NCBI GenBank assembly: GCA_004154925.1
Contig: QJNS01000120.1
Span: 176,886 to 240,885, forward strand
DNA: 64,000 nt
Source of the DNA: Monosporascus cannonballus
Lineage: Eukaryota > Ascomycota > Sordariomycetes > Xylariales
Direction of reading: 5' to 3'
In this document: one piece after another, positions 13,634 through 14,276 of the stretch
Position numbering within the stretch: position 1 is the first letter of the stretch
Layout: every line of letters starts with the position of its first letter
Notes under the pieces: model-generated
What the model saw: the letters and a program-made list of their open reading frames with translations, nothing else
Told to the model about the DNA's origin: nothing
Database searches by the model: none
Made by a program: the position numbers and the translations under genes

Positions 13634-14276
13634 ATGGCGCGTATTAAGCAAACGGCTTGTCAGTTAATTCTGGAATCAAAAAAACCATTTGACGTTAAAA
13701 AAAGAATTCCTCGCGCTATAAAATAACCACCGGCTAGAAAAATAATGCCTAAACGCCCGGCTGGAAAAACAATACTTAAAGGCTCGGCTTTTTTTAAAAG
13801 GCGAAAAAAACGCGTTTTCCCTAATACTAAATTTTCTTTAAAAAAATAAAATAATATTAAAATAATATTAATGTATATAACCGCCGTTTTACGTAGAATC
13901 CGACGATATCAAACAAATATTAAGTTACTGCTTAAAAAAGCACCTTTTTAACGTTTAATAAGAGAAATTTCGTAATAATTCAAAAGGTAATAGCGATTCC
14001 AAATCTTTGCTATAAACGTTATATAGGAAACGGCAAAAGCTGTACTAATCGAAATATTTAAAAATAAGTAATATATAAAATAATCTTAAAATAATTTAAT
14101 TTTATAACAACCAATTTATACGCTAATCACGCCAAACGAATTACTATTTAATAAAAGAATATATAATTGGTTAAAAATATTTTAAGCTATTACCAAAGCT
14201 TAGTAGGACCGTGGATAAAAGATGTGGCTCTCGGTGAAAAACCTGGCGTTTCATCAGGCAAAACTTACAACCAAAG
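13634..14276 (+). pseudogene. Histone H3-like gene relic, RIP-mutated (5' part)
   Basis: An ATG at 13634 opens MARIKQTACQLI, which differs from the H3 tail start MARTKQTARKST mainly by changes that C-to-T mutation explains (ACT to ATT, CGT to TGT, TCA to TTA). A Lys/Arg-rich stretch follows to about 13845, longer than and unlike the normal H3 tail. From 13880 to 14059 the frame aligns without gaps to the H3 fold: VLRRIRRYQTNIKLL, then APF*RLIREIS, then RFQIFAI. Stops sit at Gln positions or at unmatched ones. An intron-like AT-rich gap (about 14060-14109) is followed by TNLYANHAKRITI, matching H3 DTNLCAIHAKRVTI. Loop 1 has canonical H3 length, which argues against a CENP-A-type protein. The frame then stays open to 14276, where element A interrupts it. 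Confidence 0.8.

What the first reader, a model, noticed from the sequence alone, without database searches (positions are those of the whole stretch)
13634..14190. A RIP-degraded histone H3-like gene with an abnormal tail inside a repeat
The sequence gives MARIKQTACQLI at an ATG, then a long basic insert instead of the normal H3 tail. A gap-free match to the H3 fold follows (VLRRIRRYQTNIKLL, APF*RLIREIS, RFQIFAI), and after an intron-like gap TNLYANHAKRITI. The differences in the first 12 residues are largely explained by C-to-T changes, and several stops replace Gln. Lys9 of H3 corresponds to Gln here. Loop 1 has canonical length, so it is not CENP-A-like. RIP acts on duplicated DNA, so this H3 variant must have been multicopy, possibly carried by a mobile element. 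An H3 variant with preserved ARTKQTA-type start but altered Lys9 and tail could have interfered with heterochromatin marking.
Basis: partly seen in the sequence, partly recalled or inferred. Interest (0 to 1): 0.87.

Follow-up and report, generated by a model that had tools for sequence, protein, structure and literature searches.

The report
Dead transposon carrying histone H3 genes
This stretch of a fungal genome is a mutated, dead copy of a jumping gene that carried two altered histone H3 genes; such elements were already known in fungi, but here the histone genes look old and selected rather than accidental cargo, and they lack the lysine that silencing marks are put on.

Summary
Window 13634-14190 is part of a RIP-degraded histone H3-like gene with at least 40 copies. 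It lies in a hAT DNA transposon (about 5998-21416) that an LTR element interrupts at 14277-21003. A second, diverged H3-like gene (8948-9192, minus strand) lies in the same element, with transposase remnants between the two.

The kind is in print: hAT elements with H3-like genes in Pyrenophora tritici-repentis (Manning 2013) and Mycosphaerellaceae (Dhillon 2019), the latter read as capture of the housekeeping H3 transcript.

Against simple capture:
- a sister family keeps two open, spliceable H3-like genes;
- they share an intron that the host H3 gene lacks;
- fold identity to host H3 is 49-59%;
- pre-RIP transversions suggest purifying selection on the fold (small numbers, chosen after inspection);
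- similar proteins occur in Leotiomycetes.

Function is inferred: histones whose tails cannot carry the H3K9 silencing mark.

The parts
5998..21416 (+). hAT-type DNA transposon copy, terminal inverted repeats at both ends, with a nested LTR element and a further insert of about 221 bp near 7914-8133
   Evidence: Homology to copies on C511 and C489; ends and duplications: C489 11 of 14 inverted-repeat bases and 8 of 8 duplicated bases, window 9 of 14 and 6 of 8
5990..5997 (.). left target-site duplication, degraded
   Evidence: 6 of 8 bases equal to 21417-21424
21417..21424 (.). right target-site duplication, degraded
8948..9192 (-). histone fold of the second H3-like gene (Y)
   Evidence: tblastn with C90 X, C90 Y and host H3; the same gene in copy C489 is open over 90 aa, Pfam Histone E=3.9e-19
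10870..11857 (+). remnants matching frames of the transposase region of the C90 element (10870-11004, 11717-11857)
   Evidence: tblastn E=3.1e-8 and 5.3e-9; a Dimer_Tnp_hAT domain sits in the corresponding place of sister copy C132
13634..13826 (+). gene X, N-terminal tail: ARxxQTA-type start, Gln at position 9, basic repeats
13827..13880 (+). intron-like stretch at the PGT|VALRE position (bounds by eye)
   Evidence: GTAAGT donor visible in copies such as L013 and L033; predicted intron at the same place in C90 X and Y
13881..14063 (+). gene X, first part of the histone fold
14064..14107 (+). intron-like stretch before TNLYANHAK (bounds by eye)
   Evidence: 23 of 25 copies have a gap here that is not a multiple of three; predicted intron at the same place in C90 X
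14108..14276 (+). gene X, end of the histone fold and start of the C-terminal extension
14277..21003 (.). nested LTR retrotransposon (TG...CA) with duplication CAAAG at 14272-14276 and 21004-21008, read by eye; not part of the hAT element
21009..21416 (+). continuation of gene X's 3' region and the right end of the element

Best explanation
The finding is one gene of a dead hAT DNA transposon that carries two diverged H3-like genes on either side of its transposase. Shown: element ends and target duplications, two H3-like genes, many copies, RIP damage. Supported with small numbers: before RIP the histone fold of gene X was under purifying selection, so the H3-like genes were working genes of the element and not accidental cargo. 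Inferred: their proteins paired with host H4 and entered nucleosomes; since the tails lack Lys9 (and probably Lys4), chromatin with them could not carry H3K9 methylation at those positions, which would help the element stay active until RIP destroyed its copies.
For: Element ends and 8-bp duplication; hAT dimerisation domain in sister copy C132 between X and Y; gene order Y, transposase, X in the window and in C90; at least 40 copies; RIP statistics; two open genes of 265 and 237 aa in C90, Pfam Histone E=1.8e-34 and 1.6e-24; intron at PGT|VALRE shared by C90 X, C90 Y and the window family and absent from host H3; C90 against C118 gene X: fold transversions 5 non-synonymous to 6 synonymous where 81% non-synonymous is expected, p=0.009; fewer transversions at codon position 2 between C13/C588 and the window family, p=0.027 and 0.035; Gln9 in all but one of 24 copies counting RIP products; a clade of element genes with host H3 rejected, p=0.0125.
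Against: Selection tests rest on few changes; the C118 and C48 pair was picked after seeing that it was diverged and the two share a sub-lineage (27 transversions between them, 74 and 81 to C90), and C13 and C588 are near-copies, so there are about two independent comparisons; no correction for several tests; third-position excess alone gives p=0.11 (C13) and 0.04 (C588). Four other copies (L067, L075, L078, L081) show no constraint in the fold, as decayed near-copies would. The tree is weak (78/77 for element genes with Leotiomycete proteins) and with two degraded rows added the element genes split. No hAT domain was found in C90's own frames or in the window. No expression, binding or chromatin data; nothing here shows that the proteins enter nucleosomes.
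Confidence: 0.62

Rival explanations
1. Passive transduplication, as published: a hAT element caught a transcript of the host's housekeeping H3 gene by accident; the copies had no function, diverged by drift and were pseudogenised by RIP.
For: Published reading for Mycosphaerellaceae, from exon-exon junctions without host introns; the element genes here also lack the host's introns; most copies are dead; Manning et al. mention drift.
Against: Own introns at shared places; purifying selection signals; two open genes in C90; 49-59% fold identity to host H3 against 84% for a mushroom H3; clade with host H3 rejected, p=0.0125.
Confidence: 0.22
2. The H3-like proteins serve transposition itself, for example as DNA-bending or end-binding partners of the transposase, and do not act in host chromatin.
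For: Two copies flank the transposase in each family; tails and C-extension vary freely and are basic or charged.
Against: The columns of the IHxKR and KD motifs, from recall contacts of the H3-H3' interface, are kept in all seven aligned proteins, as expected of a nucleosome histone; no hAT element is known to me to need a histone partner.
Confidence: 0.14
3. A plain duplicated canonical H3 gene, broken by frameshifts and RIP, unrelated to any element.
For: H3-like start and fold; a partial canonical H3 copy does exist in this genome (C165).
Against: At least 40 copies, element ends, a second H3-like gene, a tail shared by the copies and different introns.
Confidence: 0.02

Closest known systems
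hAT elements with H3-like genes in Mycosphaerellaceae (Dhillon et al. 2019, PMC6710886; outline, parts 1-4 of 7 and passages seen)
   Same: hAT element of about 9.5 kb with 8-bp target duplications, one or two H3-like genes, many copies, RIP-mutated, in AT-rich blocks
   Different: Here a copy with two open H3-like genes exists, the genes have introns of their own, and fold constraint is indicated; the paper reports all copies but the original inactivated, no introns, and capture of a transcript. Whether this genome is one of its species is unknown
H3L of the Pyrenophora tritici-repentis hAT element (Manning et al. 2013, PMC3538342; passages seen)
   Same: H3-like gene inside a hAT element; tail insertions; fits neither H3 nor CenH3
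   Different: There 5.6 kb or 2.3 kb elements with one H3L, 26 nearly identical copies with ESTs; no H3L sequence was available here for comparison
Repeat R25 of Stagonospora nodorum (Hane and Oliver 2010, PMC3017866; passages seen)
   Same: RIP-degraded repeat with homology to histone H3 and weakly to a DNA transposon
   Different: No element structure was described in the passages seen
H3-like proteins of Leotiomycetes: Xylogone P0007, Pseudogymnoascus P0056 and P0064, Rutstroemia P0114 (class)
   Same: IP(K/R)-PF at the start of the fold, altered tail without Lys9 of an ARTKQTARK start (ARTNQTARR in Xylogone)
   Different: Genomic context not visible with these tools, so transposon carriage is unknown; they end in MTG(Y/F)SF(P/L)G rather than a long extension

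Membership tests
hAT DNA transposon | terminal inverted repeats with 8-bp target-site duplication | tested here: met
   copy C489 8 of 8 and 11 of 14; window copy degraded, 6 of 8 and 9 of 14
hAT DNA transposon | hAT dimerisation domain in the transposase | tested here: inconclusive
   Found in sister copy C132 in the right place (E=3.6e-4, 26.6 bits, cut-off 21.4); not found in C90 frames or at the window; DUF659 search rang nowhere, controls included
H3-carrying hAT elements of Mycosphaerellaceae (Dhillon 2019) | one or two H3-like genes in a RIP-mutated multicopy hAT element | tested here: met
H3-carrying hAT elements of Mycosphaerellaceae (Dhillon 2019) | H3-like genes without introns and all inactivated | tested here: not met
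   introns predicted in C90 and the window family; both C90 genes open. These are reported traits rather than requirements of the kind
[quoted passage not shown]
   species not identified; 5.8S rRNA search found nothing
canonical histone H3 | H3 histone fold | tested here: met
canonical histone H3 | conserved tail with Lys4 and Lys9 and near-identical fold | tested here: not met
   Gln9 family-wide, Lys4 in 12 of 24 copies; 49-59% fold identity to host H3 for C90 X, C90 Y and C489 Y
CENP-A (centromeric H3) | groups with the host CENP-A | tested here: inconclusive
   48-52% fold identity; a clade with host CENP-A not favoured and not rejected, p=0.109
RIP-mutated repeat | transition excess and RIP dinucleotide indices | tested here: met

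The most novel reading that the evidence does not exclude
A long-lived lineage of transposon-encoded H3 variants in Pezizomycotina, kept by selection and lacking Lys9 (and probably Lys4), with which hAT elements put nucleosomes on themselves that cannot be marked, and so escape H3K9-methyl silencing: an anti-silencing histone.
Probability: 0.27. Interest if true: 0.87.

Novelty: new member of a known kind. Interest (0 to 1): 0.5.

Why it matters
H3-carrying hAT elements have been read as accidents: a captured housekeeping gene that drifted. If their histones are selected variants without Lys9, they would be a natural case of a selfish element using a histone against H3K9-based silencing, and the open genes of the sister family and the Leotiomycete relatives make that testable.

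Tried and rejected
A profile search with seven H3-like proteins was swamped by long multi-histone proteins; its 120 listed rows of 7929 gave no relative that I used. The single-protein search before it gave 6145 matches, 120 listed, so relatives beyond the list were not seen. DUF659 found nothing in the genome or in the controls, which says nothing. The 5.8S rRNA search found nothing, so the species was not identified; size, AT-rich blocks and the element resemble Pseudocercospora and kin, no more. Pfam on eight C90 frames showed only histone above the cut-offs or near them. Rfam and tRNA scans of the window were empty. Structure prediction was not used. A first tree with the two most degraded rows joined long branches and was repeated without them.

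Literature: seven searches over open-licence PubMed Central papers only, six phrases for transposon-encoded histones, found 0 papers. That selection on these genes, their own introns and the loss of Lys9 are not in print rests on these searches and on word counts in two main texts ('lysine' 0 in both), not on a full survey; supplements and figures were not seen.

Full report
What was checked. The window lies on contig C33 of an 88.8-Mb, 618-contig genome. From the ATG at 13634 the sequence reads MARIKQTACQLI, and a degraded H3 fold follows. Host H3 matches it at E=1.2e-12; in the 42-kb control stretch of the same window nothing matched as an H3 fold at E<=0.01, although three weak, short or low-complexity matches of other queries appeared there. 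A Pfam Histone search of the genome gave 48 matches, ordinary histones included, 35 of them with at least one stop inside; the window place is one (E=9.1e-8). A DNA search with 13634-14190 gave 40 matches, the window and 39 others at 78-84%; only 40 of 89 candidates were scored, so this is a lower bound.

The element. Copies on C511 and C489 show one element that runs from about 5998 to 14276, is cut by an LTR element, and goes on from 21009 to 21416. In C489 it begins TAGGGTGAGGG and ends CCCTTACCCTA, with an identical 8-bp duplication ACTTTGCT outside; the window copy has the same ends, degraded, with 6 of 8 duplicated bases. A second H3-like gene (Y) lies on the minus strand at 8948-9192, and pieces that match frames of the transposase region of a sister element lie between, at 10870-11857 on the plus strand. 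In copy C132 of the sister family a hAT dimerisation domain (E=3.6e-4) sits in the corresponding place, between X and Y. In C90's own frames no hAT domain was found.

Sister families. The C90 family (35 DNA matches for the region of gene X, 31 for gene Y, fragments included) has no DNA similarity to the window element that blastn shows at E<=1e-3, yet the same order of genes. In the C90 copy both H3-like genes are open: X, with three predicted introns, codes for 265 aa with a C-terminal part of about 120 aa beyond the fold, and Y, with one intron, for 237 aa with a long N-tail; Pfam Histone E=1.8e-34 and 1.6e-24. In both, splicing gives PGTVALRE, as in canonical H3. C13 and C588 carry a further related type of gene X.

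RIP. Over 25 aligned copies of gene X, transitions outnumber transversions 4.07 to 1, and dinucleotide indices point to RIP in the element and not at 48500-64000. The window copy is somewhat less changed than the others: against columns with at least 80% agreement it departs 12 times towards C or G (T>C 7, A>G 5), 4 times the other way (G>A 2, C>T 2), and 4 times by transversion.

The tail. In 24 readable copies (one of 25 dropped) the codon at Lys9 is CAG 7, CAA 4, TAA 9, TAG 3, GAA 1 and never AAR. RIP turns CAR into TAR but cannot turn AAR into CAR, so Gln9 is older than RIP. Position 8 is CGY in 13 and TGY or TAY in 11. Position 4 is Lys in 12 and Arg in 12; since RIP can go from AGG to AAG and not back, Arg is the likelier older state. 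C90 X reads ARVRTQPRV, Arg4 and Val9; Xylogone P0007 reads ARTNQTARR, Asn4 and Arg9. Loss of Lys9 thus recurs in different forms.

Introns and origin. The host H3 gene (C110) has introns at QRL|VREI and after VTIQ. The element genes lack these and share one at PGT|VALRE; gene X has another before the NLC/TNL stretch, where 23 of 25 window-family copies have a gap that is not a multiple of three. The published view is capture of an intronless transcript. In the fold, C90 X, C90 Y and C489 Y are 59, 53 and 49% identical to host H3, while a mushroom H3 (Mycena) is 84% identical to it. The best tree of 24 rows puts element genes and Leotiomycete relatives together (78/77, weak); a clade of element genes with host H3 is rejected at p=0.0125, one with host CENP-A is not (p=0.109). 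The alignment is short (99 columns) and has long branches, and with two very degraded rows added the element genes split into two places.

Selection. RIP makes only transitions, so transversions between subfamilies tell of the time before RIP. Between C90 and C118 gene X the fold has 5 non-synonymous and 6 synonymous transversions where 81% non-synonymous is expected (ratio 0.20, p=0.009); C48 gives 6 and 6 (0.24, p=0.016), but it shares a sub-lineage with C118. The N-tail shows no constraint (10 to 2 and 11 to 2); the C-extension some (0.54, p=0.04; 0.43, p=0.005). Four copies close to C90 show no constraint in the fold: L081 (C615) 9 to 0, L075 (C444) 9 to 0, L067 (C132) 3 to 0, L078 (C439) 14 to 4, as decay after RIP would give (6 of 12 aligned copies tested, C118 and C48 chosen because one search showed them diverged). 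Between the C13 type and the window family, mean transversions per site at positions 1, 2, 3 are 0.22, 0.12, 0.26, for C588 0.19, 0.12, 0.28; position 2 is lower with p=0.027 and 0.035; third-position excess alone gives p=0.11 and 0.04. Within the window family they are nearly even (0.028, 0.036, 0.039). C13 and C588 are near-copies. These are small, partly post-hoc tests that agree in direction.

How it most likely worked. Shown: a hAT element with two H3-like genes, multiplied and then mutated by RIP. Supported: the fold of gene X was constrained earlier. Inferred: the proteins joined H4 and DNA. In seven aligned H3-like proteins the columns of I-H-x-K-R-V-T and of the D in KD are invariant, which from recall include H3-H3' contacts. 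Inferred further: without Lys9 such nucleosomes cannot carry H3K9 methylation. A role in transposition itself is the main functional rival; accidental capture is the weaker reading if the selection signal holds.

Known or new. Manning et al. 2013 (passages) found H3L in hAT elements of Pyrenophora, with ESTs, said that it fits neither H3 nor CenH3 and may have drifted, and asked whether captured genes are selected. Dhillon et al. 2019 found hundreds of RIPed copies in six Mycosphaerellaceae. Hane and Oliver 2010 (passages) had an H3-like RIPed repeat in S. nodorum, and a 2026 paper on Pseudocercospora repeats the P. fijiensis case (passages). The object is therefore a new member of a known kind. 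Within the searches named I did not find in print the evidence for constraint, the shared introns, the copy with two open genes, or the loss of Lys9.

Noticed in passing
L021 5110-5568 (contig C165, about 13.1-13.6 kb): A broken partial copy of a canonical H3 gene (85% and 76% identical to the host gene over two pieces, starting at the VALRE position) abuts, without a gap and in opposite orientation, 169 bp of the 5' end of transposon gene X (96% to C90). Its origin is unexplained.
   Followed up: partly
L009 3545-3596, 4001-4069, 8613-8669: Predicted introns of the C90 genes resemble one another and another stretch of the contig (84-100% over 28-38 bp); they hold repeated GTACTAAT motifs.
   Followed up: no
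window 14277-21003: LTR retrotransposon nested in the hAT copy with a CAAAG duplication (by eye).
   Followed up: partly
window about 5738-5997 and 21417-21490: The hAT copy itself appears to sit inside a long terminal repeat of a Gypsy-like element (by eye; repeated LTR matches).
   Followed up: no
window about 7914-8133: Stretch of about 220 bp present in the window copy and absent from the C511 and C489 copies.
   Followed up: no
window 50169-51881 (-) and 58169-59035 (+): The GC-rich end holds ordinary genes: a SNF5 chromatin-remodelling subunit (E=3.5e-85) and an HscB-like co-chaperone (E=2.8e-21).
   Followed up: yes
L011 (contig C118): In C118 gene X differs from C90 by many transversions but gene Y by few, as if the element were a recombinant of two subfamilies.
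   Followed up: no
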